A stretch of DNA of 64,000 nucleotides. Source: Labia minor. Taxonomy: Eukaryota > Arthropoda > Insecta > Dermaptera > Spongiphoridae. Each line of letters starts with the position of its first letter. The first letter of the stretch is position 1. The notes below the pieces were generated by a model. That model was given only the letters and a program-made list of their open reading frames with translations, made no database searches and was not told the DNA's origin. The position numbers and the translations under genes were made by a program. The stretch spans positions 24,275,875 through 24,339,874 of the forward strand of contig OY720350.1 in assembly GCA_963082975.1 (NCBI GenBank), read 5' to 3'. Positions 6,046-62,351 of this stretch are shown here, one piece after another.

Positions 6046-6359
6046 ATAGATGTTGTTTAATATTCTTTTTACAATAATTACATTCGAAATGTTTTCCTTC
6101 TAAATGAATTAATACATGTTTATTCGTGGTTTTTAAATAACATTTCTTTTTAAAAAATTTACATCATAATTCTTTTCAACTGTATGAATTAATAAATTTA
6201 TTTTTACAAAAATTACATTCAAAAGCCCTTTCAAATGTAGTGCCTTAATCAGTAATTTGTTCAAGTTATTCGATATGACTGTGTTCCTTGGAATACTTCT
6301 CTATATCTTCTTTGAGATTTATTTTATTTTTTAAAATTGAAAATATTTCCTTATGAATA

Positions 6360-6445
6360 CATTTTACGGGGTGGGTGGACAATGTAGACAGGGACGTGAG
6401 AGAGATGGGAGAGGTTTGATGGATGTGGCTTAGGATAGAAACATT
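6360..6445 (+). mobile_element. LINE 3' scrap
   Basis: GGGTGGGTGGACAATGTAG followed by GACGTGAGAGAGATGGGAG corresponds to the family's W-V-D-N-V..D.....MG motif, as in the LINE fragments at 4.8, 54.3 and 63.3 kb but on the opposite strand. It interrupts the trailing fingers of pseudogene A. Confidence 0.5.
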
Positions 6446-7523
6446 TGGAGAAATGTAAATTTATTTTTACAAAATTTACCCTTAAAGGCTTCTCCTCAGT
6501 ATGAATTAATAAATATTTATTTAAAGGAAATTTTAACAAACTTTATTTCTACAATAATTATATTGAAATGTCTTTATGAATTAATAAATGTGTATTTAAA
6601 TGAGATTTTTTATTAAATTTATTTTTTCAATGAATATATTCAAAAGGCTTATCCTTTGTATGAATTAAAACATGTTTCTTCAAATTGGTTTTTTTATTAA
6701 ATTATTTTTTACAAAAATTACATTCAAAGGGCTTTTACCCTGTATGAATTAATGCATGAGAATTTAAAGTAAATTTTTGATTACATTTCGTTTTACAAAA
6801 ACTTCATTACAAGGGATTTTCACCTGAATGACCATAAAAATTATTAATTAAAAGAGATTTCGGATTAAATTTAATTTTACATAAATTACATTCAAAAGGT
6901 CCCTGTATGAATAAATAAATGATTAATTAAATGAATTTTTAAAGAAAATTTTCTTTTACAATAATTACATTCAAAAGGTTTTTCACCAGTATGAATTAAT
7001 AAATGCCTTTTTAAAATAGAATTTGGATTAAATTTCTTTTTACAACAATTACATGCAAAGGTTTTTGCACTTATATGAATTAATAAATGTTGATTTAAAT
7101 TATATTTCATATTAAATTTCTTTTTACAAAAATTAAATTCTGTAAAATCCATTTGTTTAATCAGTATCTTCTTCGAGTTATTCCTTTTTTTTTTGTATCC
7201 TCTCTTCAAGTATTTATATTTTTAAAAATCGAAAATAATTCTTTATGAATTTAGTTAAATGTTTAAATAAAAATTCCTCATTTATAAGATTTGTATAATA
7301 ATATGCACAAGAGTATAGAATTCCTAAAACAATATTCCTATTTTGATTGATTTAGAGAGAATTATTTAAAAATAATTAAAACTCTAATACTTAGAACTCT
7401 TAAAACTAATACAAAATGCAAAGTTCGGAATAATAATTCTGATTACAAATTAGATTTCAAAAAATAATTTTTATGAAAATTAATAATAATATAGATGACG
7501 AAACATTGAAACTTACCTATATA

Positions 7524-7918
7524 CAGTGCCGGACTAAGGAATTTTCGGGCCCTAGGCAAAGACAGAATTCCGGGGCCCCCACCCAGATGAAAAAAAAAAC
7601 ATAAAATCTACTATTTATTTTATTTTTCATTTAAAAAAATTATTATTGAAGAGTAGTACATGGTATGTAATAAAGGTATTATTATTGCATAGAGTATTTT
7701 GCTAACGTAGAACTTCTTATTGTTATTGAACAGTATTACTTTGTATGTAATAAAGGTTTTATTATATAGAATAATTTTGTTTGGAATTTTTAATTCACAA
7801 TACATAAATATTTATTTATCAGCTTGAAATTTACGATTTTTTTAACCGTTTTACGGGCCCCCTGAAATTACGGGCCCTAGGCAGTTGCCTATTCTGCCTA
7901 GGCCTAAATCCGCCCCTG
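7524..7918. mobile_element. hAT-type MITE in exon 1 junction of pseudogene A
   Basis: A 395-bp element from CAGTGCCGGACTAAGG to CCTAAATCCGCCCCTG. It is flanked by the exact 8-bp duplication cctatata (7516-7523 and 7919-7926). Subterminal GGGCCCTAGGCA and its complement repeat near both ends. The target is the conserved exon 1/donor sequence of the zinc-finger family, so the insertion separates the splice donor from exon 1. The 61-residue minus-strand ORF inside is low complexity. Confidence 0.92.
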
Positions 7919-7968
7919 CCTATATATATTAGATAATTTTTATTTGTTATGAATATAAATCTATTTTA

Positions 7969-8537
7969 AAATTCATTTAATTATAAAAAATATGTTTTTT
8001 TAAATGTTATAAACTTTATTTTTGATAAAGAATCAGCAAACTGAAAATAGAACATTTTTCCATACAAGTTTTTATTTTTTATTATTCTTACTATAAAAAA
8101 TATTAACGAACACAAAAAAGAAATTCTAACAGTAGATATAAGTGGGAGTTGTCGGGGCATGAAAAAGTACTGGAACGCCTTCCGGTTCTAAAAAAAGGTA
8201 AGGGAACGTCGTTCCCCCGAAACACCACAGCAAATATTTGGCGATTTATTTAAAAATTATTATATAAATTTAATTTTTTAACTTTATTTTTTAATCATTT
8301 GTAGATTTTTTGAAAAATTATATAAAAAATTCTAAAGTAAAATTTAAGTAAAGAAAAAACATAAATAGGTACAGAAATATAGAAGTCAAGTTAGGAATTA
8401 TAAAATGATTAAGAATTATAAAATTGAAATAGATAAATTAGTTTAAAAATGTTTTTATTGATAAAGTTAAATAATCAATCAATATATTAATAACTAAATA
8501 TTAAGCTGATTTTGATTTTTACAAAAAAAAAATTTTT
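7969..8537. other. Upstream remnant of A and spacer before B
   Basis: 8000-8050 still resembles the TTTAAA.TTTATTTTTG...AATG stretch found upstream of genes B-D. A patch at 8145-8230 (GGAACGCCTTCCGG, GGGAACGTCGTTCCCCC) is GC-richer and may be a MITE scrap. Nothing else is recognisable. Confidence 0.4.
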
Positions 8538-9515
8538 TTAGTCATTTTTTTGAAAAGTATGAATTAATACATGTCTTTTTAAAGAAGAATTTTGATTAAA
8601 TTTCTTTTTACAAAAATTACATTGAAAAGGTTTTTCTCCGGTATGGATTAATACATGTCTTTTTAAAATAGAATTTTGATTAAATTTCTTTTTACAAACA
8701 TTACATTGAAAAGGCTTTTCTCCTGTATGAATTAATAAATGTATTTTTAAAGCAGAATTACTAATAGATGTCTTTTTACAAAAATAACATTCAAAAGCCT
8801 TTTTCCTTGTATGAGTTTTAAAATGTCTATATAAATTATATTTCGATTTAAATTGTCTTTTACAAAAATTACATTCAAATGGCTTTTCGCCCGTATGGAT
8901 AAATAAATGATTAATTAAATGAATTTTTAAAGAAAATTTTCTTTTACAATAATTACATTCAAATGGTTTTTCACCTGAATGAATTAATAAATGTTTATTT
9001 AAATAATTTTTGCGAGTAAATTTCTTTTTACAGTAATTACATTCCAAATTCCTTTTATCCGAATTAGATGAATTATTTTCAAGTATTTCGTTAATGTTTG
9101 AATCAGCATATTCTTCATGTTTTTCGACTTGACTGTTTTCATTGGAATATTCCTCCATATCCTTTTTCAGTTTTATTTTATTTTTTAGAATTGAAAATAT
9201 TTCTTTATGAATACATTTTTTTACATGTTTAGATAAAAATTCCTCATTTATAAAATTAGAATGACAATACTGACAAGGATATAAAGGACCTAAAACAAAA
9301 TTCCATTTTAATTGGTTTAGAGCTACTTAAAACTATTTAAAACTCTACAAATCAAACTATTTTAAAATTCAATATTCTGAATAATACGATTCCAAATTAA
9401 GTTTCAAAAAACAATTTTTGTGGAAATTTTTAATATAGATGAACAAACATTTAAATTTACCTATTCATATATCGTATATTGAATATTTTCTGTTTTCTTG
9501 TAAAAAAAAATCCAT
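8538..9515 (-). CDS. C2H2 zinc-finger protein, gene B (exon 1 probably broken)
   Basis: This is a putative nuclear DNA-binding protein. Exon 2 runs from 9289 to the stop at 8538. It encodes GPLYPCQYCHSNF..., a C2HC head finger (C-x2-C-x12-H-x4-C), a Lys/Glu-rich linker that includes MEEYSNENSQ, then six C2H2 fingers. The fourth finger (CYFCKKTSISNSALKIH) lacks the usual core Phe. Exon 1 would be 9515-9461 with the intron at 9460-9290. It is 9 nt longer than in its relatives, and the extra codons bring a stop (…SIYDI then TGA) before the splice site. Either B is a recent pseudogene, it uses another 5' exon, or translation starts at the internal Met at 9158, which would drop the head finger. 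Its sister genes are C and D. Confidence 0.7.
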
Positions 9516-9639
9516 TTTATACTAATTAAATTGTAAAGACAATAATTTATATATAAGTAGTAAATAAGTCCTATATATAAATGTTTAAAACTTTATTTTT
9601 GTAATGACATTCAAATAAAAACATCCAAATAGTTATGTT

Positions 9640-9900: not shown

Positions 9901-9909
9901 GATGTTTAT

Positions 9910-10200: not shown

Positions 10201-10238
10201 GAGATTTATTATTAAATTTATTTTTTCAATGGTTACAT

Positions 10239-11277
10239 TTAAAAGGTCTTTGCATGAATTAATACATGCTTATTTAAAGTGTTTTTTCGATTAAATTTCT
10301 TTTTACAAAAATTACATTCAAAAGGTTTTTCTCCTGTATGAATTAATAAATGAGAATTTAATGTAGATTTCTGATTAAATTTCTTTTTACAAAAATTACA
10401 TTCAAATGGCTTTTCGCCCGTATGGATAAATAAATGATTGATTAAATGAATTTTTAAAGAAAATTTTCTTTTACAATAATTACATTCAAAAGGTTTTTCA
10501 CCAGTATGAATTAATAAATGTCTTTTTAAAATAGAATTTTGATTAAATTTCTTTTTACAAAAATTACATTCAAAAGGCATTGCTCCTGTATGAGTTATCA
10601 AATGAGTATTTAAATAAGGTTTTCGCTTAAATTTTTTTTTGCAATAATTACATTCAAATGGCATTTCTTCTGTATGAATTAGTAAATGTGTTTTTAAAGT
10701 AGACTTTTTATTGAATTTCTTTTTACAATAATTGCATTCAAATGGTTTTTCACCAGTATGAATTAATAAATGTATATTTAAATGATTTTTGCGAGTAAAT
10801 TTCTTTTTACAATAACTACATTCGAAATTCCTTTTATCCGAATTAGATGAATTTTTTTCAAGTTTTTCGTCTTGACTGTTTTCTTTGGAATATTCCTCCA
10901 TATCCTTTATCAGTTTTATTTTATTTTTTAGAATAGATAATATTTCTTTATGAATACATTTTTTTACATGTTTAGATAAAAATTCATCATTTATAAAATT
11001 AGAATGACAATACTGACAAGGATATAAAGGACCTAAAACAATATTATTTTCATTGATTTAAATCAATGGGAATATTCCAATTTTAATTGGATTAGAGCTA
11101 CTTAAAACTATTTAAAACTCTAATTAGCCATTGATGATTAAATTGAATATTCAGATATTTTGATTACAAATTAAATTTCAAAAAAATAATTTTTGTGGAA
11201 ATTAATAATATAGTTGAACATTTAAACTTACCTATATATATTGGATATTTTCTGTCTTCTTGTAAAAAAAAATCCAT
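10239..11277 (-). CDS. C2H2 zinc-finger protein, gene C
   Basis: The two-exon model gives about 279 residues. Exon 1 (11277-11232, 46 nt) encodes MDFFLQEDRKYPIYI. The intron (11231-11033) has GT/AG ends and splits a Gly codon. Exon 2 (11032-10239) starts GPLYPCQYC. The order is N-terminal peptide, C2HC head finger (residues about 21-41), charged linker with MEEYSKENSQDEK, then seven C2H2 fingers of C-x2-C-x12-H-x3-H form with TGEKP-type linkers. No break is visible. The array ends with HAKTF, and a decayed further finger follows to about 10200. It is probably a nuclear sequence-specific DNA-binding protein. Its upstream block is shared with D, so C and D arose by duplication. The internal Met at 10901 is a less likely start because exon 1 is intact. 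Confidence 0.85.
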
Positions 11278-12194: not shown

Positions 12195-13239
12195 TTAATG
12201 AATACATTTAAAAGGCTTTTCCTTTGTATGAATTAATACATGTTTATTCAAATTGTTTTTTCGATTAAATTTCTTTTTACAAAAATTACATTCAAAGGGC
12301 TTTTCTCCTGTATGAATTAATACATGATAATTTAATGTAGATTTTTGATTAAATTTCTTTTTACAAAAATTACATTCAAATGGCTTTTCGCCCGTATGGA
12401 TAAATAAATGATTAATTAAATGAATTTTTAAAGAAAATTTTCTTTTACAATAATTACATTCAAAAGGTTTTTCACCAGTATGAATTAATAAATGTCTTTT
12501 TAAAATAGAATTTTGATTAAATTTCTTTTTACAAAAATTACATTCATAGGGTTTTTCGCCCGTATGAATAAATAAATGTTTAATTAAATGAATTTTTAAA
12601 GAAAATTTTTTTTTACAATAATTACATTCAAATGGTTTTTCACCAGTATGAAATAATAAATGTCTTTTTAAAACAGCATTTTGATTAAATTTTTTTTTAC
12701 AAAAATTACATTCAAAAGGCATTTCCCTTGAATGGGTTATCAAATGAGCATTTAAATAAGGTTTTCGCTTAAATTTCTTGTTACAATAACTACATTCGAA
12801 ATTCGTTTTATACGAATTAGATGAATTATTTTCAAGTTTTTCGTTAATGTTTGAATCAGCATATTCTTCATGTTTTTCGTCTTTACTGCTTTCCTTGGAA
12901 TATTTTTCTATATCCTTTTTCAGTTTTATTTTATTCTTTATAATTGAAAATATTTCTTTATGAACACATTTTTTTATATGTTTAGATAAAAATTCATGAT
13001 TTATAAAATTTGAATGACAATTCTGACAAGGATATAAAGGACCTAAAACAATATTCCCGTTTTAATTGATTTAGAGCTTCTTAAAACTATTTAAAACTCT
13101 ACAAATCTTAATTCAGAATTTTATGATTACAAATTAAATTTCAAAAAATAATTTTTGTGGAAATTAATAATATAGTTGAACATTTAAACTTACCTATATA
13201 TATTGGATATTTTCTGTCTTCTTGTAAAAACCAATCCAT
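12195..13239 (-). CDS. C2H2 zinc-finger protein, gene D
   Basis: The two-exon model gives about 297 residues. Exon 1 (13239-13194) encodes MDWFLQEDRKYPIYI. The intron is 13193-13043 (151 bp, GT/AG). Exon 2 is 13042-12195 and is open throughout, with no ATG needed near 12743. It encodes GPLYPCQNCHSNF..H....C, a C2HC head finger, a linker rich in Lys, Glu and Asn, and seven C2H2 fingers. A partial eighth (KEKPFKCIH) is cut by the stop. The first finger is CSYCNKKFKRKPYLNAHLITH. Alternating NQNSILKRH and SLKIHLI.H helices suggest that a two-finger block was duplicated. It is likely a nuclear DNA-binding protein, and C is the closest relative. Confidence 0.85.
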
Positions 13240-16687: not shown

Positions 16688-16689
16688 AA

Positions 16690-38855: not shown

Positions 38856-38898
38856 ATGGATCTTTATTCCCAAGACAGAAAATTTCCAATATATATAG
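38856..38898 (+). pseudogene. Orphan first exon of the zinc-finger family
   Basis: Encodes MDLYSQDRKFPIYI, followed by a G and a GT donor. It is one codon shorter than the 46-nt exon of its relatives but in frame. About 35 bp of intron similarity follow, and then the match stops. No zinc-finger exon lies on the plus strand before 43 kb; the nearest finger gene downstream is on the minus strand. It is a truncated duplicate, or an exon without a known partner. Confidence 0.82.
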
Positions 38899-43479: not shown

Positions 43480-43630
43480 GCCTTTTTTATTCTGTATGAA
43501 TGAATATATGTTTTTTTAAGGTTGATTTCAGATTAAATTTCTTTTTACAATCATTACATTCAAAAGGTTTTTCTCCTGTATGATTTAATAAATGAGTATT
43601 TAAAGTTGATTTCAGACAAAATTTATTTTT
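43480..43630 (-). pseudogene. Two lost C-terminal fingers of gene I
   Basis: Directly after the stop of gene I the same frame continues as a finger without its second Cys (stop in its place: CNY then TGA) and a finger with CNDC. It then ends with a KHIFIHTE tail like that of E and H. The array was shortened by one TGT to TGA change. Confidence 0.8.
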
Positions 43631-44897
43631 TCAATAATTACAATCAAAAGGCTTTTCACCTGTATGAATTAACAAATGTGATGTTAAAGTAGTTTTGTGA
43701 TTAAATTTCTTTTTACAATAATTACATTCAAAAGGCTTTTCTCCTGTATGAATTAATAAATGTACATTTAAATGAGATTTCTGTTTAAATTCCTTTTTAC
43801 AGTAGTTACATTCAAAAGGCTTTTCTCCTGTATGAATTAATATATGTCTATTTAAATGACATTTATGATAAAATTTTTTTTTACAATTATTACATTCAAA
43901 AGGCTTTTCTCCTGTATGAATTAATAAATGAGTATTTAAAGTTGATTTCCGATTAAATTTCTTTTTACAATAATTACATTCAAAAGGCTTTTTTCCTGTA
44001 TGAATTAATAAATGTTGTTTTAAATCTGATTTATCATTAAATTTCTTGTTACAATAATTACATTCAAAAGGCTTTTCTCCTGTATGAATTAATAAATGTC
44101 TATCTAAAATTGATTTCTGATTAAACTTCTTTTTACAATAATTGCATTCAAAAGGTTTTTCTCCTGTATGAATTAATAAATGTACATTTAAATGAGATTT
44201 CTGTTTAAATTCCTTTTTACAGTAGTTACATTCAAAAGGCTTTTCTCCTGTATGAATTAATATATGTCTATTTAAATGACATTTATGATAAAATTTCTTT
44301 TTACAATTATTACATTCAAAAGGCTTTTCTCCTGTATGAATTAATAAATGATTATTTAAAGTAGATTTCCGATTAAATTTCTTTTTACAATAATTACATT
44401 CAAAAGGCTTTTTGCCAGTATAAGTTAATAAATGTGGATTTAAATGAGATTTATGATCATTCTTCTCTTTAAAATTATTACATTCAAAACTCGTGTCTTC
44501 TGTATTGTTAATTTCAGTATATTCTTCAAATTTTTTGTCTATATATTTCTCTGCACTCTTTATGAGTTTCATTGCATTTTTTAAAATTGAAAATATTTTT
44601 TTATGATAACATTTTTTTAGATGTTTATATAAAAATTCCTCACTTATAAAATTTGTCTGACAATATACACAAGAATATAGAGGACCTAAAAAAAGAATTG
44701 TTTTCATTATTTTAAATCATTATATTTTTATATATAAACTATTTAATAATTCCATTTAAAGAATAATATCATTACAAATAATATTTAAAAAAATAATTTT
44801 TGTGAAAATTAACATTAATTTAGATAGAAAAAACAGAGAAATAAAAATTACCTTTATATATTGGATATTTTCTGTCTTCTTGTGAATAAAGATCCAT
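43631..44897 (-). CDS. C2H2 zinc-finger protein, gene I
   Basis: The two-exon model gives about 366 residues. Exon 1 (44897-44852) encodes MDLYSQEDRKYPIYK, the intron is 44851-44686 (166 bp), and exon 2 is 44685-43631. It has a C2HC head finger (CVYCQTNF...H....C) and a linker with FEEYTEINNTEDTSFEC. A degenerate finger without its second Cys (CNNFKEKN) follows, then nine C2H2 fingers with TGEKP linkers, then a stop in the tenth. Fingers 1-3 and 6-8 are almost the same block (RKSTL, HKCHL, QKSHL helices), a sign of an internal duplication. The 3' flank keeps the family's GTCTAAAAATTATTT-like sequence, and an AATAAA lies at 43404-43399. The Met at 44707 lies in the intron. It is nearest to gene G, and diverges from gene E 2.1 kb away. 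Confidence 0.87.
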
Positions 44898-47037: not shown

Positions 47038-48448
47038 ATGGATCTTTATTCACAACAAGACAGAAAGTATCCAATATATATAGGTAATTTTTTTATTTCT
47101 TCTTGGTTTTTTCATTGTAACTAAAATTATTTTTTTTAAAAATATTTGTAATGATATTATTCCTTAAATTTAATTGTAGAATAGTTTATATATAAAAATA
47201 TAAATATTCAAAATGATGAAAACAATACTCTTTTTAGGTCCTTTACATTCTTGTAGATATTGTCATATTAATTTTATAAGTGAGGAATATTTATCTAAAC
47301 ATCTAAAAAAATGTTTTCATAAAAACATATTTTCAATTTTGAAAAGTGATATAAAACTCCAAAAGGATACAGGGAAATATTTAGATGAAAAATTTGGAGA
47401 AGATACTGATTCACACAATACAGAAGACAGAAGTTTTCAATGTAATTATTGCATCAAAAAATTTAATTCGAAATCAAATTTAGATCAACATTTATTAATT
47501 CATGCAGGAGAAAAGCCTTTTGAATGCAATTATTGTGAAAAGAAATTTAATCGGAAATATGATTTAAATAGGCATTTATTAATTCATACAGCAGAAAAGC
47601 ATTTTGAATGTAATTATTGCAATAAGAAATTTAATCGCAAATCTAATTTAAATGTTCATTTATTAATTCATACAGCAGAAAAGCCTTTTGAATGTAATTT
47701 TTGTAAAAAGAAATTTAATGTGAAATCAAGTTTAGATAGACATTTATTAATTCATACAGGTAAAAACCCTTTTGAATGTAATTATTGTAACAAGAAATTT
47801 AATCGGAAATCTGATTTAAATACACATTTATTAATTCATACAGTAGAAAAGCCTTTTGAATGTAATTATTGTAAAAAGAAATTTTATCGGAAATATGATT
47901 TAAATAGACATTTGTTAATTCATACAGCAGAAAAGCCCTTTGAATGTAATTATTGTAAAAAGGAATTTAATCTGAAATCAACTTTAAATACACATTTATT
48001 AATTCATACAGGAGGAAAATATTTTGAATGCAATTTTTGTAAAAAGAAATTTAATCAGAAATCAATTTTAGATAGACATTTATTAATTCATACAGGAGAA
48101 AAGCCTTTTGAATGTAATTATTGTAAAAAGAAATTTAATCTAAAATCAACTTTAAATACTCATTTATTAATTCATACAGGAGAAAAGCCTTTTGAATGTA
48201 ATTCTTGTAAAAAGAAATTTAATCAGAAATCAACTTTAAATACACATTTATTAATTCATACAGGAGAAAAACCTTTTGAATGCAATTATTGTAAAAAGAA
48301 GTTTAATCAGAAATCAATTTTAGATAGACATTTATTAATTCATACAGGAGAAAAGCCTTTTGAATGTAATTATTGTAAAAAGAAATTTAATATGAAATCA
48401 ACTTTAAAAACACATTTATTCATTCATACAAATGAAAAAAAGAATTGA
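47038..48448 (+). CDS. C2H2 zinc-finger protein, gene E
   Basis: The two-exon model gives 418 residues. Exon 1 (47038-47083) encodes MDLYSQQDRKYPIYI, the intron is 47084-47237 (154 bp), and exon 2 is 47238-48448. The N-terminal peptide and C2HC head finger (residues about 21-41, CRYCHINFISEEYLSKHLKKC less one residue) are followed by a charged linker with KYLDEKFGEDTDS and NTEDRSFQC. Twelve C2H2 fingers follow, closing with HLFIHTNEKKN. The contact residues (helix -1, 2, 3, 6) vary from finger to finger (RYDR, RSNV, QSIR, LSTT), while the framework is almost constant. An AATAAA lies at 48542-48547 after the conserved GTCTAAAAATTATTT 3' flank. The Met at 47213 is intronic. It is probably a nuclear DNA-binding protein; the target is unknown. 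Confidence 0.9.
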
Positions 48449-49534: not shown

Positions 49535-51440
49535 GAAGATAAGATATAATAGATTACAATAATTTTGATTTAAAACAAATTTTAAAAAAATACTCAAAAT
49601 TTAAAACATCTCGTTCATTTGTCTAAAATATCATATTTTAATTTTATATAACCAAGAAATCATTTATGTACTTAAATATAGTTGTAATTAATAATTGAAA
49701 CAAAAACAAAAATAATATAATTTAGTAAATTTAATTGACGTTCTGAAAATATTTTTGTATTCATAAAACATTAAAAATAATATATTCTGTTTTTTTAACC
49801 TTTCATTTTCAAATAGAAAAGAAATATTCAAATATATAGAAAGAATAAATGAAAATTAAGTTAAATATGATCTAAATATTTTATTAAATTAATTAAGATG
49901 AGAACTTTTAGAATAAATTATTTAATTGAATTGATATTTTAATATTAGAATTTAAAATAAAAAGTGAAATATTATAATAATTATTTGATTGGGAATCGCT
50001 ATGATAATTCATTGTTTAAAATGATTCCGCTAGGGCCAGTGAGCCGGGAGCCGGGAGATTGCGCGAGATGCTCTTGAATGAACAACACCGAGAATTATAT
50101 AAACTTGAAAAAATTAATTTCTGCGGTTATTGATTAGATATTAATAAAATGTATAGCCTATATCTAGATGTGAAAAACGCAAAAAATGACCGCAGATCAC
50201 CCCGTCCCACAGGCCTTCCGAATTCCCTGCATTTATTTGAGTATCAAACTCGACACCCACATACCATCCATATACATAATATTCGAAACAAACCCAGCAA
50301 ACATGGTATTAACTATTACTAATATTACACAATATTTAAATTATACAAAAAAAAACTTGTTCATCAATGACAGCAATCGAAATAAATTGATTTCTTGACT
50401 AATTTTTATTTTTCACTTAACTTATGAATTTATATTTATTATTTGATAAATATAAATATAAATTTTATTTAACACTTAACACCAATAAAATTAAAAAAAT
50501 TATTATTTTTTGTTTGATAAATAATTTAAAATACATTGTAACACTTCGCGCTATCGATCAAATACCAAAGTTAAATTATTTAATATTTGATAAATAAATA
50601 CAAATTTCACAACAATATAGAAACTCACAATAAGCACTATTAAATCAAATATATTCACGTACTCCTCTCAGTATATCTTTTATAGTTTTTCACATGTTTA
50701 AAAATTGCATAAAACTTCTTTATATAGAATTTCAGCTTGGTTGAATCGCTGAAAGTACCGGAATTAATTTTTTAGCACGTTGACTAACAATCACGCGCCA
50801 GCATGTGACCAGATGCCATCAACAAAAAGCCAAACTCTCGCTGGTTTAATAAATACTATTTATTAATTTTAATTTATAATTTAATTTAAATATAGTATAT
50901 ATATATATATGTGTTAATTTATCCAATTGGAATTTGCATGATAGCCGAGCGGACACATCCCACATTTTTTTCATTTATAAATTAACCCGAATGTACGTAA
51001 ATCAGTTGTTTAATAAACTTAGATGATTAAAAATGCGTTGGATTAATTATTCTTAGTTAATCAATGATTTATGGATTTCTTGTGATCTTTATAAATAGTA
51101 TATTTATGGAAATAGAAATGATTATTTATTTGTCACTGGACTGGATATTAACAAGAACATTATTCGTTTATTTTATTTATGTAAATTACATAAAAGATGG
51201 TGGGGTTTTCTGTTAATTTAAAAATTATTTATTTGGATATAAAACTAACATTTTTGAAAAAAGCATATTTGATTTCTGTAATGCTAATTTTATATCTCAA
51301 TAAATAATGTTTAAATTCCCAATATTCATTCAAAAAAAAAAATTTAAAAATACCTCCCTACTATCGTCGGTCGGTAAAAACGCTCACACATGCCCGCCTG
51401 CCATCATTGGCTCCTTTAGCAACTAAAAAAAAATAGCATT
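49535..51440. repeat. Duplicated spacer block upstream of F
   Basis: Matches 56070-58380 over most of its length (for example GATTTAAAACAAATTTTAAA, then CCGTCCCACAGGCCTTCCGA versus CCGTCCCATAGGCCTTCC). Its second half also matches 60090-60870. It includes a reversed Helitron body (49860-50170), the dispersed repeat at 50650-50880, the ATTTATTTGG.TATAAAACTA MITE and a CTATCGTCGGTCGGTAA tail. The 70-residue ORF at 50186 is repeat sequence. Confidence 0.85.
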
Positions 51441-51592: not shown

Positions 51593-53003
51593 ATGGATCT
51601 TTATTCACATCAAGACAGAAAGTATCCAATATATATAGGTAATTTTTTTATTTCTTCTTGGTTTTTTCATTGTAATTAAAATTATTTTTTTTAAGAATAT
51701 TTGTAATGATATTATTCCTTAAATTTAATTGTAGAATAGTTTATATATAAAAATATAATTATTTAAAATGATTAAAACAATTCTCTTTTTAGGTCCTTTA
51801 CATTCTTGTAGATATTGTCATATTAATTTTATAAGTGAGGAATATTTATCTAAACATCTAAAAAAATGTTTTCATAAAAACATATTTTCAATTTTGAAAA
51901 GTGATATAAAACTCCAAAAGGATACAGGGAAATATTTAGATGAAAAATTTGGAGAAGATACTGATTCACACAATACAGAAGACAGAAGTTTTCAATGTAA
52001 TTATTGCATCAAAAAATTTAATTCGAAATTAAATTTAGATCAACATTTATTAATTCATACAGGAGAAAAGCCTTTTGAATGTAATTATTGTGAAAAGAAA
52101 TTTAATCGGAAATATAATTTAAATAGGCATTTATTAATTCATACAGCAGAAAAGCATTTTGAATGTATTTATTGCAATAAGAAATTTAATCGCAAATCTC
52201 ATTTAAGAGCTCATTTATTAATTCATACAGGAGAAAAGCCTTTTGAATGTAATTATTGTAAAAAGAAATTTAATCGCAAATCTAATTTAAATGTTCATTT
52301 ATTAATTCATACAGGTACAATGCCTTTTGAATGTAATTATTGTCAAAAGAAATTTAATCAAAAATCTCATTTAAATGTTCATTTATTACTTCATTCAGGA
52401 GAAAAGCCTTTTGAATGTAATTATTGTAAAAAAGAATTTACACAAAAATCTTCATTAAATAATCACTTAATGATTCATACAGGAGACAAGCCTTTTGAAT
52501 GTAACTACTGTAAAAAGGAATTTAAACATAAATCTCATTTAAATGTACATTTATTAATTCATACAGGAGGAAAATATTTTGAATGCAATTTTTGTAAAAA
52601 GAAATTTAATCACAAATCTCATTTAAGAGCTCATTTATTAATTCATACAGGAGAAAAGCCTTTTGAATGTAATTATTGTAAAAAGAAATTTATTCAGAAA
52701 TGTGATTTAAATAAGCATATATTAATTCATACAGGTGAAAAGCCTTTTGAATGTAATTCTTGTAAAAAGAAATTTAATCAGAAATCAACTTTATATACAC
52801 ATTTATTAATTCATACAGGAGAAAAACCTTTTGAATGCAATTATTGTAAAAAGAAGTTTAATCAGAAATCAATTTTAGATAGACATTTATTAATTCATAC
52901 AGGAGAAAAGCCTTTTGAATGTAATTATTGTAAAAAGAAATTTAATATGAAATCAAATTTAAAAACACATTTATTCATTCATACAAATGAAAAAAAGAAT
53001 TGA
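51593..53003 (+). CDS. C2H2 zinc-finger protein, gene F
   Basis: The two-exon model gives 418 residues. Exon 1 (51593-51638) encodes MDLYSHQDRKYPIYI, the intron is 51639-51792, and exon 2 is 51793-53003. It has the same head finger and linker as E, then twelve C2H2 fingers. The gene is a patchwork. Its 5' flank and intron match H, the head to finger 3 match E, fingers 5-8 (52330-52612) match G 59641-59923 with only two differences seen in 283 bp, and fingers 10-12 and the 3' flank match E. Recombination or gene conversion among cluster members is the simplest reading. AATAAA is at 53097-53102. The Met at 51768 is intronic. Likely nuclear DNA-binding. Confidence 0.9.
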
Positions 53004-53321: not shown

Positions 53322-53329
53322 TGTTCTTG

Positions 53330-54040
53330 TTAATATTTATTTAAAAATCATTTAAAATTATAAATGTTGTTTACAAATTTAGTGATGATCTCACTAGTAA
53401 ACATATCTTTTTTACATATTGTTTTGTTATATATTGTTTTTGATTTTTCTCCTGCGCGAAAATTTGTTAATTTTTAAATTGTTATTATTGAATATACACA
53501 TCTAGATGAAACGAGCAATGTTCCATGTAGAATATAATATATAATATACAATATTTACATAAAAATAAATTAAACTTACAATTTATATAATCGTAATCAC
53601 AAATTGAGTGATGATCTCACTAGTAAGCATATGTCTCTTCTGCATATTGTTTTGTTACACAATTTTTAAGGAATTATTTTTTATATGTCGATATATTTAG
53701 AATTTAATTTTATATGAAAAAACACATTTTATTTTAAGTGTTATATTTTTTTTTAGAAATTAATCAATTTTTATTAATTTAAAAGTCTAATTAATTTAAT
53801 TTTTATCCCAATTAACTAATCAATGTCTTTTTGTTTTATTTATCTTTGCAAATTTGATCATAACATAATCTTTTATATTTCGTTTGTTATATAAAATAAA
53901 TTTACCGAATAATATAAATATTAAAATAACGTTTTTCTTAATATCTTAAACTATTTTAAAATTATTTGTAGTTCTCCCTCAGATGAATTAATATATTTAA
54001 ATAAGAATTATTTTTATAGGTCGATATATTTAGAAATTTA
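53330..54040. other. AT-rich spacer with a short repeat
   Basis: TTTAGTGATGATCTCACTAGTAA occurs at about 53380 and again in near form (GAGTGATGATCTCACTAGTAA) at 53604, a duplication of about 60 bp around it. No gene. Confidence 0.5.
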
Positions 54041-54200
54041 CTAGTTGCTCAGAGCGCCTTCGGCGCTCCTCACACCTAGACGGGGGCTCTTGGTTGAAAG
54101 TAGTAAAAGGTTTTCATCCATTTTGTTTCAATCAGTATATTACATACATTCATTTCTTTTTGTGTTCTTATTTAAAATATATTTTAATTTAATCAGTAAA
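54041..54200 (-). mobile_element. Helitron 3' end, diverged copy
   Basis: On the minus strand hairpin GAGCGCCGAAGGCGCTC, then TGAGCAACTAG before T. The inner GC block is shortened. It continues into TTTCATCCATTTTGTTTCAA and joins LINE sequence like the copies at 4.6 and 63.05 kb. Confidence 0.78.
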
Positions 54201-54229
54201 TTAATTATATATATTATTATTGTTTATGT

Positions 54230-55060
54230 TATATCTATCTATCTATGTGGCTCAAAGATACTCGGAAGTTCTTGGCCGCAACAACCACATTTCTCCAAGT
54301 GTACCTATCCTGAGCCCTTGTTCCATCTCTCTTACGTCCATTCCTACGCGTCCTTGGTTTTCCAATCGGTTTCCCCACAAATATCTTTTTCCTCTCCCAT
54401 TCTAGCCACGTGCCCTGCCTATCGCAGCTTTTTCCCTTTTATAACCCTAACTATTTCTGAAGTTGCAGAGAGGTCATGCAATTTCTCGTTATGCAGTCTC
54501 CGCCATTCCCCGGTGACCTCATCTTTCTTTGGACATAAATGCTGGGAAGAATCCTATTCTCAAATACTCTGAATCTACTCTCATCTTCCAGGGTCATAGA
54601 TCATGCCTCCCACCCATATAATACAACAGGCAAAATAATTTTTTTATATATTTTAATTTTGATTCCCTTTGATAATAATTTTGATGAGATAAGCCTCTTT
54701 ATTGCAAGATAACAGGCGTTTCCCGATTGCAACCTCGATTTAAATTCTCAAATATTATTATCCTTCGTGATTACATTCAATTTTTCTACATATTCAAATT
54801 CTACATTTTGTATATTAAGATTTTGTATGTTACTAAATATTTTTTCTTATCACTATTAATTTCAAACCTCCATTAAATTTTCCTCGCTATCTGTAATTGC
54901 AATTCCCGAATCTCCTATTATATTTAAGTCGTCTGGGTAACCGAATATTTTACAATTGATTTCCGCATCTTACTCTTTCTTTACTACCTTCAAGACAAAT
55001 TTGAAGATCAAAATTTGAAAAAGTTTATCCGGATGTATTGTGTCATGCGTATGTTTCACT
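54230..55060 (-). mobile_element. LINE fragment (RT to 3' end)
   Basis: The minus strand carries YPDDLNIIGDSGIAITDSEE, a changed YADD catalytic box of the RT, near 54.95-54.89 kb, then the thumb and 3' part as in the 4.8 and 63.3 kb copies. Frames are broken. Similar to the family of the 62.4 kb copy. Confidence 0.65.
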
Positions 55061-56070
55061 AAAATCTACAAATAATTAGTGAACAGAAATATTGAATTCG
55101 CGGTTTTTTTCTAATATATGTCACAATGAAAATATCTTAATTAATGTTGATCGATTTGGCCTGAAATCGCAATATCTCCTAATATTTCCTCCGCCTATGG
55201 TTCTTAAGTATTGTATATGTTATAATAGTGAAATAGAGTATAATATTTCTTAATGATTACATTTTGATATTTTATTTTCATTGCTAGATTATTATTGATT
55301 ATTTTTAATTATAATGAAATTTGAGAAAATGCAAAGTTAGAGACTTGAGACAATTTATAAAAATTAACGGTATAAAAATATAGATAAATTAACAATATAT
55401 ACATTCATTAATAGTATTCATTTAAATTAATTATTTTTTTTGTTTTTTTATTATTAAGTTCATTTATTATTAATTTTTCTAGATCATAGTTAATTTCCTC
55501 CCTTAAAAGAAACTTACCTAATTCTGTGGTGCTAGGAGATTTGAAAATTATTATTTCGCTTACAGTTTCTGTCATGTTCGACCTCCATCCAACAGTTATT
55601 TTCTCTCAAGTTTCTTGCTTCTCTTAATTATGTGATCTATATATTTAATTTTTTTTGATTCATTATATAATAAAATTAAAACAAATAAAAATTTTCACTT
55701 AGTTAATTTATATAAATTTCAATTTAAACTGATTGTGAGTCATACGCTTTGCCAAGAAACTGAATAATTTGTGTACAGAAATATTGAATGTTCTTAGCGA
55801 GATTTGATATAATATTATCCGATTTGTCCTAAATCTGAATTAGAAGAAAATTATAAATGGAATTTAATACTAAGTTGATTTTCAAAATTTTCCATTCTTA
55901 ATGCATATGATTGATTACATCAATTACATGTGTTAAAATTTAAAAAAATTCAAATATTCTAATTTTTAAATTTATATACAATTTAATATTATTTTTTATT
56001 AATCATATCAAAAAAAGAGAATTTATTAAAAATTAAAAATAAAAAAAGAAGCCTATTAATAAAAAAATAT
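55061..56070. other. AT-rich spacer
   Basis: No recognisable gene. 55030-55110 and 55730-55830 share TTGTGTACAGAAATATTGAA-like phrases, a hint of a small duplicated piece. Confidence 0.5.
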
Positions 56071-58380
56071 AATAGAATACAATAATTTTGATTTAAAACA
56101 AATTTTAAAAAAATACTCAAAATTTAAAACATCTCGTTCATTTGTCTAAAATATCATATTTTAATTTTGTATAACCAAGAAATCATTTATGTACTTAAAT
56201 ATAGTTGTAATTAATAATTGAAACAAAAACAAAAATAATATAATTTAGTAAATTTAATTGACGTTCTGAAAATATTTTTGTATTCATAAAACATTAAAAA
56301 TAATATATTCTGTTTTTTTAACCTTTCATTTTCAATTAGAAAAGAAGAAATATTCAAATATATAGAAAGAATAAATAAAAATTAAGTTAAATATGATCTA
56401 AATATTTTATTAAATTAATTAAGATGAGAACTTTTAGAATAAATTATTTAATTGAATTGATATTTTAATATTAGAATTTAAAATAAAAAGTGAAATATTA
56501 TAATAATTATTTGATTGGGAATCGCTATGATAATTCATTGTTTAAAATGATTCCGCTAGGGCCAGTGAGCCGCGAGGCCGAGAGCTGCTCTTGAATGAAC
56601 AACTCGGAGAATTATATAAACTTGAAAAAATTAATTTCTGTGGTTATTGATTAGATATTAATAAAATGTATAGCCTATATCTAGATGTGAATAGCTCCGA
56701 AGCAGCTAGTATTAACAAGAACATTATTCGTTTATTTTATTTATGTAAATAACATAAAAGATGGTGGAGTTTTCTGTTAATTTAAAAATTATTTATTTGG
56801 ATATCAAACTAACATTTTTGAAAAAAGCATATTTGATTTCTGTAATACGAATTTTATATCTCAATAAATCATTTTTAAATTCCCAATATTCATTCAAAAA
56901 AAAAATTTAAAAATACCACCCTACTATCGTCGGTCGGTAAAAACGCACACACATGCCCGCTCTACAGGCTTTTTGCTGACTCTTAATCACAGACTATACA
57001 TGATGGTTGTCCAGCTCAATGGGACGGGTGAAATTCGAACGCCAGATGGTGTTGCAGGCGAAAACGGTTGACTCTTCAGGCGCCCAAACGCTACGCAAAA
57101 AATGACCGCAGATAACCCCGTCCCATAGGCCTTCCGAATTCCCTGCATTTATTTGAGTATCAAACTCGACACCCACATACCATCCATATACATAATATTC
57201 GAAACAAACCCAGCAAACATGGTATTAACTATTACTAATATTACACAATATTTAAATTATACAAAAAAAAACTTGTTCATCAATGACACCATCGAAATAA
57301 ATTGATTTCTTGACTAATTTTTATTTTTCACTTAACTTATGAATTTATATTTATTATTTGATAAATATAAATATAAATTTTATTTAACACTTAACACCAA
57401 TAAAATTAAAAAAATTATTATTTTTTGTTTGATAAATAATTTAAATTACATTGTAACACTTCGCGCTATCGATCAAATACCAAAGTTAAATTATTTAATA
57501 TTTGATAAATAAATACAAATTTCACAGCAATATAGAAACTCACAATAAGCACTATTAAATCAAATATATTCACGTACTCCTCTCAGTATATCTTTTATAG
57601 TTTTTCACATGTTTAAAAATTGCATAAAACTTCTTTATATAGAATTTCAGCTTGGTTGAATCACTGAAAGTACCGGAATTAATTTTTTAGCACGTTGACT
57701 AACAATCACGCGCCAGCATGTGACCAGATGCCATCAACAAAAAGCCAAACTCTCGCTGGTTTAATAAATACTATTTATTAATTTTAATTTATAATTTAAT
57801 TTAAATATAATATATATGTGTTAATTTATCCATTTGGAATCTGCATGATAGCCGAGCGGAGACATCCCACATTTTTTTCATTTATAAATTTACCCAAATG
57901 TTCGTAATTCAGTTTTTTGATAAACTTAGATGATTAAAAATGCGTTGGATTAATTATTCTTAGTTAATCAATGATTTATGGATTTCTTGTGATCTTTTTA
58001 AATAGTATATTTATGGAAAGAGAAATGATTATTTATTTATAAATTTCCTTCTCACTAAGAACAATTCGTATGTGTTTCTCTCGTTTCAAATATTGACATT
58101 TAAGAAAATTTTTAATCCATACATATTAAATATTAACAAGAACATTATTCGTTTATTTTATTTATGTAAATTACATAAAAGTTTTCTTTAAAAATTATTT
58201 ATTTGGATATAAAACTAACATTTTTGAAAAAAGTATATTTGATTTCTGTAATGCTAATTTTATATCTCAATAAATAATTTTTAAATTCCCAATATTCATT
58301 CAACAAAAATTTAAAAATACCTCCCTACTATCGTCGGTCGGTAAAATCGCTCACACATGCCCGCCTGCCATCATTGCCTC
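56070..58380. repeat. Second copy of the duplicated spacer block (upstream of G)
   Basis: Copy of 49535-51440. Between 56700 and 56955 it carries an extra inserted piece that repeats its own later part (ATTAACAAGAACATTATTCG to CGTCGGTCGGTAAAAACGC), beside a Helitron 3' scrap (GCTCCGAAGCAGCTAGT). 56955-57100 is unique, and its minus-strand ORF (56994-57176) matches no family. Confidence 0.82.
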
Positions 58381-58547
58381 CTTTAGCAAAGAAAAAAAAA
58401 TAGAATTGAGTGGACCAGTGGGCACCAGTGGACTCATCTGTGTATGATGCTCTGTGATCTGTGGTTAATATAACAATCAAAATATAAAACGATCTAATTA
58501 CTTATTAGTATATATTTTAGAATTGATAATACATTAATCAATTAAAA

Positions 58548-59963
58548 ATGAATCTTTATTCACAAGAAGACAGAAAATATCCAATATATAAAGGTAATTT
58601 TTATTTCTCTGTTTTTTCTATCTAAATTAATGTTAATTTTCACTTATAATGATTTAAAATAATGAAAACAATTCTTTTTTTAGGTCCTCTATATTCTTGT
58701 GTATATTGTCAGACAAATTTTATAAGTGAGGAATTTTTATATAAACATCTAAAAAAATGTTTTCATAAAAAAATATTTTCAATTTTAAAAAATGCAATGA
58801 AACTCAAAAAGAGTGCAGAGAAATATATAAACGAAAAATTTGAAGAATATACTGATATTAACTATACAGAAGACACGAGTTTTGAATGTAATAATTTTAA
58901 AGAGAAGAATGATCATAAATCTCATTTAAATCCACATTTATTAACTTATACTGACAAAAAGCCTTTTGAATGTAATTATTGTAAAAAGAAATTTATACAC
59001 AAATCTACATTAAATAGACATTTATTAATTCATACAGGTGAAAAGGCTTTTGAATGTAATTATTGTAAAAAGAAATTTATTCGGAAATATGATTTAAATA
59101 GACATTTGTTAATTCATACAGGTGAAAAGCCTTTTGAATGTAGTAATTGTAAAAGGAAATTTAATGATAAATCAGCTTTAAAAAAACATTTATTAATTCA
59201 TACAGGAGAAAAACCTTTTGAATGTGATTATTGTAAAAAGAAATTTGAATTAAAATCTCATTTAAATGAACATTTATTAATTCATACAGGTGAAAAGGCT
59301 TTTGAATGTAAGTTTTGTAAAAAGATATTTTTAAAAAAATCTTCATTAAAAAATCATTTATTCATTCATACAAGAGAAAAGTCTTTTGAATGTAATTATT
59401 GTAAAAAGAAATTTAATCGGAAATCTGATTTAAATAGTCATTTATTAATTCATACAGGTGAAAAGCCTTTTGAATGTAGTAATTGTAAAAAGAAATTTAA
59501 TCACATATCTCATTTAAGAGCTCATTTATTAATTCATACAGGAGAAAAGCCTTTTGAATGTAATTATTGTAAAAAGAAATTTAATCGCAAATCTCATTTA
59601 ACTTTACATTTATTAATTCATACAGGAGAAAAGCCTTATGAATGTAATTATTGTCAAAAGAAATTTAATCAAAAATCTCATTTAAATGTTCATTTATTAC
59701 TTCATTCAGGAGAAAAGCCTTTTGAATGTAATTATTGTAAAAAAGAATTTACACAAAAATCTTCATTAAATAAGCACTTAATGATTCATACAGGAGAAAA
59801 GCCTTTTGAATGTAACTACTGTAAAAAGGAATTTAAACATAAATCTCATTTAAATGTACATTTATTAATTCATACAGGAGGAAAATATTTTGAATGCAAT
59901 TTTTGTAAAAAGAAATTTAATCATAATTCTTCTTTAAAAAGGCATTTATTAATTCATAAATGA
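58548..59963 (+). CDS. C2H2 zinc-finger protein, gene G
   Basis: The two-exon model gives 441 residues. Exon 1 (58548-58593) encodes MNLYSQEDRKYPIYK. The intron (58594-58683) is the shortest of the family at 90 bp. Exon 2 is 58684-59963. It has a C2HC head finger CVYCQTNF..., a linker with FEEYTDINYTEDTSFEC, a degenerate finger without its second Cys (CNNFKEKN, shared with gene I), then twelve C2H2 fingers, the last CNFCKKKFNHNSSLKRH. Finger sequences are more varied than in E (CSNC, CDYC, CKFC). The 3' flank differs from E, F and H. The Met at 58662 is intronic. G and I form one branch of the family although they lie on opposite strands. Likely a nuclear DNA-binding protein. Confidence 0.9.
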
Positions 59964-60084
59964 TTTCACATTAATGTAAATTTTGTAAAAAAGTAATTGA
60001 GAAATATTGTAAAGTAATAGAATTAGACATTTCTTTTAATATCATTATACGAAAATATATTATTTTTATAGTTTTACTTTTTAT

Positions 60085-60890
60085 ATTATTTAAATCAAAT
60101 ATATTCACATACTCCTCTCAGTATATCTTTTATCGTTTTTCACATGTTTAAAAATTGCATAAAACTGCTATATATAGTATTTCAGCTTGGTTGAATTGCT
60201 AAAAGTACCGGAATTAATTTTTTAGCACGTTGACTAACAATCACGCGCCAGCATGTGACCAGATGCCCTCAACAAAGAGCCAAACTCTCGCTGGTTTAAT
60301 AAATACTATTTATTAATTTTAATTTATAATTTCATTTAAATATAATATATATGTGTTAATTTATCCAATTGGAATTTGCATGATAGCCGACCGGAGACAT
60401 CCCACATTTTTTTCATTTATAAATTTACCCAAATGTTCGTAATTCAGTTTTTTGATAAACTTAGATGATTAAAAATGCGTTGGATTAATTATTCTTAGTT
60501 AATCAATGATTTATGGATTTCTTGTGATCTTTATAAATAGTATATTTATGGAAATAGAAATGATTATTTATTTGTCACTGGACTGGATATTAACAAGAAC
60601 ATTATTCGTTTATTTTATTTATGTAAATTACATAAAAGATGGTGGGGTTTTCTGTTAATTTAAAAATTATTTATTTGGATATAAAACTAACATTTTTGAA
60701 AAAAGCATATTTGATTTCTGTAATGCTAATTTTATATCTCAATAAATAATGTTTAAATTCCCAATATTCATTCAAAAAAAAAAATTTAAAAATACCTCCC
60801 TACTATCGTCGGTCGGTAAAAACGCTCACACATGCCCGCCTGCCATCATTGGCTCCTTTAGCAACTAAAAAAAAATAGCATTGGGTGATT
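60085..60890. repeat. Third copy of the duplicated spacer (upstream of H)
   Basis: Near identical to 50640-51440 upstream of F, including CACGCGCCAGCATGTGACCA, the tRNA-like ATAGCCGA.CGG, the MITE and the GTCGGTCGGTAA tail. Together with the matching 5' flank and intron this shows that F and H come from one recent duplication. Confidence 0.88.
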
Positions 60891-60929
60891 GGGTGCACCA
60901 CAGACCATCACTCTGTGATTTGCATGTTA

Positions 60930-60950
60930 TTTTGATTGTGAAAATCAAAA
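60930..60950 (+). promoter_or_regulatory. Inverted-repeat motif upstream of H
   Basis: The same perfect TTTTGATT / AATCAAAA arms as in F, with a shorter (TA)n after it, 75 bp before the ATG. Confidence 0.55.
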
Positions 60951-61024
60951 TTTAAAACGTTTATATATATATCATTTATTTATATTATATATTTTCTAAT
61001 TATAAATACATTCATAAATTAAAA

Positions 61025-62351
61025 ATGGATCTTTATTCACATCAAGACAGAAAGTATCCAATATATATAGGTAATTTTTTTATTTCTTCTTGGTTTTTTC
61101 ATTGTAATTAAAATTATTTTTTTTAAGAATATTTGTAATGATATTATTCCTTAAATTTAATTGTAGAATAGTTTATATATAAAAATATAATTATTTAAAA
61201 TGATTAAAACAATTCTCTTTTTAGGTCCTTTACATTCTTGTAGATATTGTCATATTAATTTTATAAGTGAGGAATATTTATCTAAACATCTAAAAAAATG
61301 TTTTTATAAAAACATATTTTCAATTTTCAAAAGTGATGTAAAACTCAAAAAGGATACAGGGAAATATTTAGACGAAAAATTTGGAGAAGATACTGATTCA
61401 AACAATACAGAAGACAGAAGTTTTCAATGTAATTATTGCAACAAGAAATTTAATTCGAAATCAAATTTAGATCAACATTTATTAATTCATACAGGAGAAA
61501 AGCCTTTTGAATGTAATTATTGTAAAAAGAAATTTAATTGGAAATATGATTTAAATAGGCATATATTAATTCATACAGCAGAAAAGCCTTTTGAATGTAA
61601 TTATTGTAAAAAGAAATTTAATCGCAAATCTAATTTAAATGTTCATTTATTAATTCATACAGGTACAATGCCTTTTGAATGTAATTTTTGTAAAAAGAAA
61701 TTTAATCAAAAATCCCATTTAAATAGTCATTTATTAATTCATACAGTAGAAAAGCCTTTTGAATGTAATTATTGTAAAAAGAAATTTTATCGGAAATCTG
61801 ATTTAAATAGACATTTATTAATTCATACAGCAGAAAAGCCTTTTGAATGTAATTATTGTAAAAAGGAATTTAATCTGAAATCAACTTTAAATACACATTT
61901 ATTAATTCATACAGGAGAAAAACCTTTTGAATGTAATTATTGTAAAAAGAAATTTAATCTAAAATCAAATTTAAATCATCATTTATTCCTTCATACAGGT
62001 GAAAAGCCTTTTGAATGTAATTATTGTAAAAAGAAATTTAATCAGAAATCAACTTTAAATACTCATTTACTAATTCATACAGGTGAAAAGCCTTTTGAAT
62101 GTAATTATTGTAAAAAGAAATTTAATCAGAAATCAACTTTAAATATTCATTTACTAATTCATACAGGTGAAAAGCCTTTTGAATGTAATTATTGTAAAAA
62201 GAAATTTAATAAGAAATCTATTTTAGATAGACATTTATTAATTCATACAGGAGAAAAACCTTTTGAATGTAATTATTGCAACAAGAAATTTAATATGAAA
62301 TCAACTTTAAAAACACATTTATTCATTCATACAAATGAAAAAAAGAATTGA
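61025..62351 (+). CDS. C2H2 zinc-finger protein, gene H
   Basis: The two-exon model gives 390 residues. Exon 1 (61025-61070) encodes MDLYSHQDRKYPIYI, the intron is 61071-61224 (154 bp), and exon 2 is 61225-62351. It has a C2HC head finger CRYCHINF... and a linker KKDTGKYLDEKFGEDTDSNN, then eleven C2H2 fingers ending with the HLFIHTNEKKN tail shared with E and F. Fingers 8-10 (QKSTL, QKSTL, KKSIL) are close neighbours in sequence, suggesting recent finger duplication. The 3' flank matches E and F until about 62405, where LINE sequence starts. The Met at 61200 is intronic. Likely nuclear DNA-binding. Confidence 0.9.

What the first reader, a model, noticed from the sequence alone, without database searches (positions are those of the whole stretch)
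6046..62351. A zinc-finger family defined by a 15-residue first exon and a C2HC head finger
Seen: seven loci (B, C, D, I, E, F, H) plus G, a pseudogene and an orphan exon share a tiny exon 1 of the MDLYSQEDRKYPIYI type, a phase-1 intron in a Gly codon, a C-x2-C-x12-H-x4-C head finger, a charged linker and 6-12 C2H2 fingers. Known: insect zinc-finger expansions usually carry a ZAD or BTB head, and C2HC fingers of this spacing (as in FOG proteins) bind proteins. Inference: exon 1 plus head finger is a partner-binding module of a lineage-specific DNA-binding family that I cannot match to a named one.
Basis: partly seen in the sequence, partly recalled or inferred. Interest (0 to 1): 0.85.

Follow-up and report, generated by a model that had tools for sequence, protein, structure and literature searches.

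The report
Zinc-finger gene cluster with unusual head
This stretch of animal DNA holds a cluster of duplicated genes for DNA-binding proteins that share one fixed front end while their DNA-reading fingers change and are swapped between copies; the front end matches no family model I could test, so it may be a new protein-docking or pairing part.

Summary
Eight two-exon zinc-finger loci (B, C, D, I, E, F, G, H), a wrecked ninth (A) and an orphan exon share a short first exon; the eight share a phase-1 intron and a C2HC head finger. Corrections: the head is C-x2-C-x12-H-x3-C, not x4; B has an in-frame stop in exon 1; G is open; I is truncated by a TGA. Seven spliced frames are open. Exon 1 is 86.5% identical between the two clades, against a noncoding maximum of 64%, so it is very likely a real coding exon, though no RNA was available. 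The fingers look like a young polydactyl family: variation peaks at base-contact positions (6, 3, -1), and finger cassettes move between genes (F fingers 5-7 match G fingers 9-11 at 97.6-100% while their heads are of different types). The head reaches no Pfam cut-off, is not a ZAD, and has INSM1-like spacing. Its exon-2 part models as a finger running into a long amphipathic helix. Best reading: a fixed interaction or dimerisation head on shuffled DNA-binding arrays, ZAD-like in plan but not in zinc module. Substitution ratios in the head are near neutral; taxon and distribution are untested.

The parts
6046..7980 (-). locus A, wrecked copy: exon-1 relic about 7964-7920 with ATA in place of the start codon, separated from its intron by a TE-like insertion (about 7918-7524, 8-bp target duplication TATATAGG); stops and frameshifts in the rest
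   Evidence: read by eye; only two complete fingers, 6991-7053 and 6907-6969
9461..9515 (-). locus B exon 1, with in-frame TGA and 9-nt insertion
8538..9289 (-). locus B exon 2: head finger, linker, 6 fingers
11232..11277 (-). locus C exon 1 (MDFFLQEDRKYPIYI-G)
10239..11032 (-). locus C exon 2: head finger, linker, 7 fingers
13194..13239 (-). locus D exon 1 (MDWFLQEDRKYPIYI-G)
12195..13042 (-). locus D exon 2: head finger, linker, 7 fingers
38856..38898 (+). orphan exon 1 (MDLYSQDRKFPIYI, one codon shorter, donor GTTA instead of GTAA); no head or finger found between here and the next locus
44852..44897 (-). locus I exon 1 (MDLYSQEDRKYPIYK-G)
43631..44685 (-). locus I exon 2: head, degenerate unit, 9 fingers, then TGA; one more complete finger downstream (43496-43558)
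47038..47083 (+). locus E exon 1
47238..48448 (+). locus E exon 2: head finger, linker, 12 fingers
51593..51638 (+). locus F exon 1
51793..53003 (+). locus F exon 2: head finger, linker, 12 fingers
52328..52612 (+). finger cassette in F that matches locus G (59639-59923) with 2 mismatches in 285 bases, flanked by abrupt divergence
58548..58593 (+). locus G exon 1 (MNLYSQEDRKYPIYK-G), intron only 90 nt
58684..59963 (+). locus G exon 2: head, degenerate unit, 12 fingers
61025..61070 (+). locus H exon 1
61225..62351 (+). locus H exon 2: head finger (Tyr at the H-x5 site), linker, 11 fingers

Best explanation
A tandemly duplicating cluster of polydactyl C2H2 zinc-finger genes in an AT-rich animal genome. 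Each protein has a fixed N-terminal module of about 63 residues: a 15-residue exon-1 strap, a C2HC beta-beta-alpha finger, and an amphipathic helix running on from the finger helix. Behind it, after a charged linker, come 6-12 C2H2 fingers. SHOWN: the gene structure, low divergence of exon 1 compared with its flanks, variation peaking at base-contact positions, and finger cassettes shared between genes whose heads differ. INFERRED: the array binds DNA and its specificity changes quickly; the head does not read DNA but binds a partner or pairs with another copy, so that new specificities keep one effector. In plan this resembles ZAD-ZNF proteins (a zinc globule plus a stem helix that dimerises), with an unrelated zinc module. 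Estimates: real spliced protein family 0.93; DNA-binding arrays under diversifying change 0.8; interaction or dimerisation head 0.55; repeat or TE silencing as the main purpose 0.25.
For: Seven spliced frames open, with identical splice phase. Exon 1 at 86.5% inter-clade identity against a noncoding maximum of 64%. No indel in exon 1 or in the 48-residue exon-2 head among the seven open copies, while introns, flanks and linkers have many. DRKYPIY, GPL, the three Cys and His, and I31, I34, L41, Y48 (exon-2 numbering) are invariant in the six or eight heads aligned. Array: of 75 fingers the core Leu and last His are 75/75, and entropy is highest at helix positions 6 (3.12 bits), 3 (2.77) and -1 (2.68); counting the two degenerate units, 76 of 78 array units before the stops keep four ligands. 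Nonsynonymous change relative to the pooled synonymous rate is 1.54 at -1/3/6, 0.66 at -2/2/5, 0.26 elsewhere. In the head the equivalent positions vary little: helix 2 Glu and 6 Lys invariant, 3 Tyr or Phe, -1 Ser or Asn. Cassette shared by F and G: 2 mismatches in 285 bp. AlphaFold2 of the exon-2 head: mean pLDDT 75, two 2-residue strands then one helix 16-54; positions 27-48 are amphipathic (shuffle P 0.0014-0.085 over 7 heads). TATAWA at -36 to -41 from the ATG in 9 of 9 copies, against 0.067 for a random 20-nt stretch of the window.
Against: No RNA evidence. Substitution ratios give no support for purifying selection on the head: against a neutral spectrum, exon 1 plus head has ratios 0.46-0.86 (P 0.16-0.38 in 6 pairs); by NG86 the head alone is 0.64-0.97 between clades, 1.0-1.3 in three E-I pairs and 0.44-0.62 in three B-D pairs. 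The case for constraint rests on divergence and indels compared with intron and flanks. In 7 of 8 loci the last ligand could be the His at H-x5 instead of the Cys, which would make the head a plain C2H2 finger. A longer model of the head with two more fingers had pLDDT 44; AlphaFold2 does not place zinc; exon 1 was not in any model. The amphipathic helix is not significant in B (P 0.085), the heads are not independent, no correction was made, and the central a position is Asp, Ala or Lys, so a coiled coil is a weak call. A and B are broken and I is truncated. In one search the search pattern itself demanded both Cys and the first His, so their invariance is by construction. In one search the contact ratio is 1.35 if measured against the synonymous rate of the same codons, and P (0.010) treats opportunities as exact and paralogues as independent.
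Confidence: 0.6

Rival explanations
1. The head finger is only the first, diverged finger of the DNA-binding array (possibly a plain C2H2 finger through the H-x5 His), and exon 1 is an ordinary leader peptide. There is no partner-binding module.
For: The head fits the C2H2 core spacing exactly (C-x2-C-x3-F-x5-L-x2-H-x3-C) and 7 of 8 loci offer a His at H-x5; substitution ratios in the head are close to neutral.
Against: Head contact positions vary little and are acidic or aromatic; the head is separated from the array by a charged linker without TGEKP; locus H lacks the alternative His; exon 1 and the head keep their type while array fingers move.
Confidence: 0.2
2. Exon 1 is not used. Translation starts at the ATG just before the head finger (M[M/I]KTILFLGP or MKTILFLGP).
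For: E, F, G, H and I have an in-frame ATG 7-8 codons before GPL.
Against: B, C and D have no such ATG in frame; the upstream exon and its G|GTAA donor are the conserved element in both clades.
Confidence: 0.06
3. A decaying cluster: a burst of recent duplications now drifting to pseudogenes, with no current function.
For: A is wrecked, B has a stop in exon 1, I is truncated, an orphan exon exists, and transposable-element remnants lie in between; head substitution ratios are near neutral.
Against: Seven of eight finger loci keep a spliced open frame, 279-441 residues; 76 of 78 array units keep four ligands; backbone ratio 0.26.
Confidence: 0.12

Closest known systems
ZAD-ZNF proteins of insects (PMC5509000 and PMC7655104, passages read)
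   Same: N-terminal zinc module with a long stem helix and a C-terminal C2H2 array; clustered, young, high-turnover genes; the ZAD is a homodimerising head
   Different: A ZAD is 71-97 residues with two Cys pairs about 50 residues apart; here one Cys pair, one His and one Cys within 21 residues. No ZAD match in Pfam. In Drosophila ZAD-ZNFs positive selection falls mainly on linkers; here change peaks at finger contact positions.
ZF271-like / APEZ expansions of Hemiptera (PMC6444547, passages read)
   Same: Tandem clusters, pseudogenes, varied arrays, species-specific expansion
   Different: Those are reported to have no domain besides the fingers; here a shared head exon and C2HC finger are present at 8 of 8 finger loci. 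APEZ sequences could not be compared.
KRAB-ZNF families of vertebrates (cluster growth and KRAB/KAP-1 from PMC6444547 passages; contact-residue evolution recalled)
   Same: Fixed N-terminal effector plus polydactyl array with fast-changing contact residues and cluster duplication
   Different: No KRAB match in three head stretches
INSM1 and MOZ C2HC (CCHC) fingers
   Same: INSM1 has the same C-x2-C-x12-H-x3-C spacing; the MOZ CCHC finger is the top fold match
   Different: Scores are weak (INSM1 E 0.012; MOZ fold E 1.2, probability 0.82) and other zinc fingers score nearly as well; surrounding architecture differs
FOG / U-shaped C2HC fingers (recalled)
   Same: A C2HC finger proposed to bind proteins
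   Different: FOG spacing recalled as H-x4 or x5-C; here x3. No FOG or U-shaped chain is named in the table of 57 PDB matches.

Membership tests
Polydactyl C2H2 zinc-finger (Krueppel-type) proteins | tandem C-x2-C-x12-H-x3-H units with TGEKP-like linkers | tested here: met
   Pfam PF00096 1.2e-58 and PF13465 4.9e-96 for E
ZAD-ZNF | N-terminal ZAD with two Cys pairs about 50 residues apart | tested here: not met
   only three Cys before finger 1; no ZAD hit for 3 head stretches at E <= 5, nor among the 25 of 34 families shown for full-length E
ZAD-ZNF | head homodimerises | not testable with these tools
   needs protein; an amphipathic helix only hints at it
BTB-ZNF / KRAB-ZNF | N-terminal BTB or KRAB domain | tested here: not met
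   no such match for 3 head stretches at E <= 5
FOG-type C2HC finger | H-x4/5-C spacing (recalled) | tested here: not met
   8 of 8 heads are H-x3-C
INSM1/MOZ-type C2HC (CCHC) finger | C-x2-C-x12-H-x3-C on a beta-beta-alpha fold | tested here: inconclusive
   spacing as in INSM1; fold match weak, E 1.2
APEZ / ZF271-like | no domain other than finger arrays (PMC6444547) | tested here: not met
   shared exon 1 plus C2HC head at 8 of 8 finger loci
APEZ / ZF271-like | phylogenetic grouping with hemipteran ZF271-like proteins | not tested
   no such sequences on hand

The most novel reading that the evidence does not exclude
Exon 1, the C2HC finger and its stem helix form an undescribed zinc-dependent pairing or docking domain that arose on its own and plays for this lineage the part that ZAD plays in flies and KRAB or SCAN in vertebrates: one fixed head under which finger cassettes are exchanged between genes, so new DNA specificities arise without changing the effector.
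Probability: 0.33. Interest if true: 0.68.

Novelty: new variant of a known kind. Interest (0 to 1): 0.46.

Why it matters
Zinc-finger expansions in Hemiptera were reported to have no domain but the fingers, and that paper calls for a search for their interaction partners (PMC6444547, passages). If this head is a partner-binding module it gives a defined bait for such a search in its own lineage. The F/G tract shows finger cassettes moving between genes with different heads, a direct case of specificity shuffling.

Tried and rejected
Relatives elsewhere: head alignment A2 found none in viral contigs (49 pattern hits, 0 confirmed) or genome contigs (92, 0); A3 found none in viral contigs (49, 0) and one of 112 in genome contigs, a Pseudomonas protein whose match covers query residues 6-117 but which, read by eye, holds C2H2 fingers and no C2HC head. 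No Rfam family at gathering score and no tRNA in the window. PDB by profile: 57 distinct matches at E <= 10, best 0.012, so none below 0.001. Foldseek: 205 matches at E <= 10 (50 shown), none at E <= 0.001. Pfam on three head stretches: only matches below cut-off, the lowest E being CILP_C 0.0072 and zf-C2H2_3rep 0.023, not followed. The first structure job (117 residues, 8 sequences) was poor, pLDDT 44. Aligning F with E, H and G end to end blurred the cassette exchange because the arrays are out of register; finger-by-finger comparison in the same call showed it. Showing head constraint by substitution ratios alone failed; at about 80% A+T few synonymous changes are possible. Paper searches: I saw no head of this kind in the listings; only passages of PMC6444547, PMC7655104 and PMC5509000 were read. 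The library holds open-licence papers only, so this is no claim that the family is unpublished.
Full report
WHAT IS THERE. The window has no held genome and is 21-29% G+C in 4-kb steps. Nine ORFs of the 33 were checked against Pfam: among them are remnants of a reverse transcriptase (20705-21655), a Mos1-type mariner (24400-25071), a hAT C-terminal region (34133-34528) and DUF5641 (2877-3158), which I recall as a tail of BEL/Pao elements. This fits an animal, probably an arthropod; the taxon was not tested. Among these lie two groups of zinc-finger loci: A-D on the minus strand at 6-13 kb, and I (minus), E, F, G, H (plus) at 43-62 kb, with an orphan first exon at 38.9 kb.

GENE MODEL. Nine exon-1 matches were found in six frames of 64 kb, nine of nine at family loci. 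Each of the eight finger loci has exon 1 (46 nt, 55 in B), donor G|GTAA, an intron of 90-199 nt, and acceptor TTTAG|GTCC, giving a Gly codon split in phase 1. C, D, I, E, F, G and H read through (279-441 residues); B stops inside exon 1; I stops after nine fingers with one more complete finger downstream; A is wrecked and its exon-1 relic is separated from the intron by an insertion with an 8-bp duplication (by eye). A TATAWA sequence stands 36-41 nt before the ATG in nine of nine copies, which would put transcription start within about 10 nt of the ATG; that is inference, and related copies in AT-rich DNA are not independent tests.

IS EXON 1 REAL? Alignment of the eight 5' regions shows identity falling on both sides of exon 1. 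A 46-nt window on exon 1 is 86.5% identical between C/D and E-I; 87 overlapping noncoding windows average 45%, maximum 64%. Among the seven open copies there is no indel in exon 1 or in the 48-residue exon-2 head. Against a neutral spectrum from flanks and introns, nonsynonymous to synonymous ratios for exon 1 plus head are 0.46-0.86 and not significant. NG86 ratios for the head are 0.64-0.97 between clades, 1.0-1.3 in three E-I pairs and 0.44-0.62 in three B-D pairs. So exon 1 and the head diverge far less than their flanks, but protein-level selection is not shown by ratios.

THE HEAD. It is C-x2-C-x12-H-x3-C in all eight loci. Seven of eight also have a His at H-x5; locus H does not, so Cys is the likelier ligand, not a certain one. 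Three head stretches gave no Pfam match above cut-off and no ZAD, BTB or KRAB match. A profile of the head matches the INSM1 C2HC finger best among solved chains (E 0.012), with the same spacing. The exon-2 part (57 residues, seven sequences) models with mean pLDDT 75 as two 2-residue strands and a helix from 16 to 54; a longer construct gave the same order of elements at pLDDT 44. Foldseek's best match is the MOZ CCHC finger, E 1.2, probability 0.82, with ordinary C2H2 fingers close behind. Residues 27-48 carry a stripe [FYIV]-I-I-x-L-x-Y with spacing 4-3-4-3-4-3; the hydrophobic moment beats shuffles at P 0.0014-0.045 in six heads and 0.085 in B. The helix positions that touch bases in a DNA-reading finger are here Ser/Asn (-1), Glu (2), Tyr/Phe (3) and Lys (6).

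THE ARRAY. In 75 of the 76 fingers, the core Leu and last His are invariant and entropy peaks at helix 6, 3 and -1 (the pattern itself required both Cys and the first His). Over 62 near-neighbour finger pairs, nonsynonymous change relative to the pooled synonymous rate is 1.54 at these positions (1.35 against their own synonymous rate), 0.66 at -2/2/5 and 0.26 elsewhere; Fisher P about 0.01, with opportunities treated as exact.

CASSETTE EXCHANGE. Exon 1, intron and upstream DNA of F are closest to H, its head from about 51848 and its first two and last three fingers to E (97.6-100% for those fingers), yet its fingers 5-7 match G fingers 9-11 at 98.8, 97.6 and 100%. The head of G is of the I type, 63% identical to E over the first 104 residues. 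The shared tract is 285 bp with 2 mismatches and sharp edges. F finger 4 equals H finger 3 at 100%, I fingers 1-3 repeat as 6-8 (97.6-98.8%), and C, D and B share fingers at 98.8-100%. Larger blocks around F, G and H are 92-97% identical, so the cluster also grows by segmental duplication.

HOW IT LIKELY WORKS. Arrays bind DNA and change specificity by point change at contact residues and by cassette exchange; the head stays and supplies a constant interaction. The plan matches ZAD-ZNF proteins, where a zinc globule with a stem helix dimerises (PMC5509000, passages), but the zinc module differs. Repression of repeats, as discussed for KRAB and hemipteran arrays (PMC6444547, passages), is possible and untested.

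KNOWN OR NEW. The kind, clustered polydactyl C2H2 genes with a conserved head, is known. This head could not be matched, so I file it as a new variant of a known kind, with the caveat that no arthropod proteome could be searched.

Noticed in passing
L001:2721-5513: In Pseudomonas sp. PB101 (NZ_RWIR01000011.1) an ORF that reads like an Rhs/YD-repeat protein (by eye) ends in a eukaryote-type array of six C2H2 fingers with TGEKP-like linkers; G+C is 55% in that kilobase against 59-65% in the other nine.
   Followed up: partly
window 7524-7918: A roughly 395-bp hAT-like non-autonomous insertion with 8-bp target duplication TATATAGG, at the exon-1/donor boundary of pseudogene A (read by eye).
   Followed up: no
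window 4598-5531 and 63050-64000: Two copies of one repeat at 94.9% identity, one at each end of the finger region, with a diverged copy (69-71%) near 54040-54601.
   Followed up: no
window 49541-51131 and 56064-58038: Segmental duplication upstream of F and G, in two pieces at 96-97% identity.
   Followed up: no
36-41 nt before the ATG of nine exon-1 copies: A TATAWA box in nine of nine copies that would imply a very short 5' leader of about 10 nt or less.
   Followed up: partly
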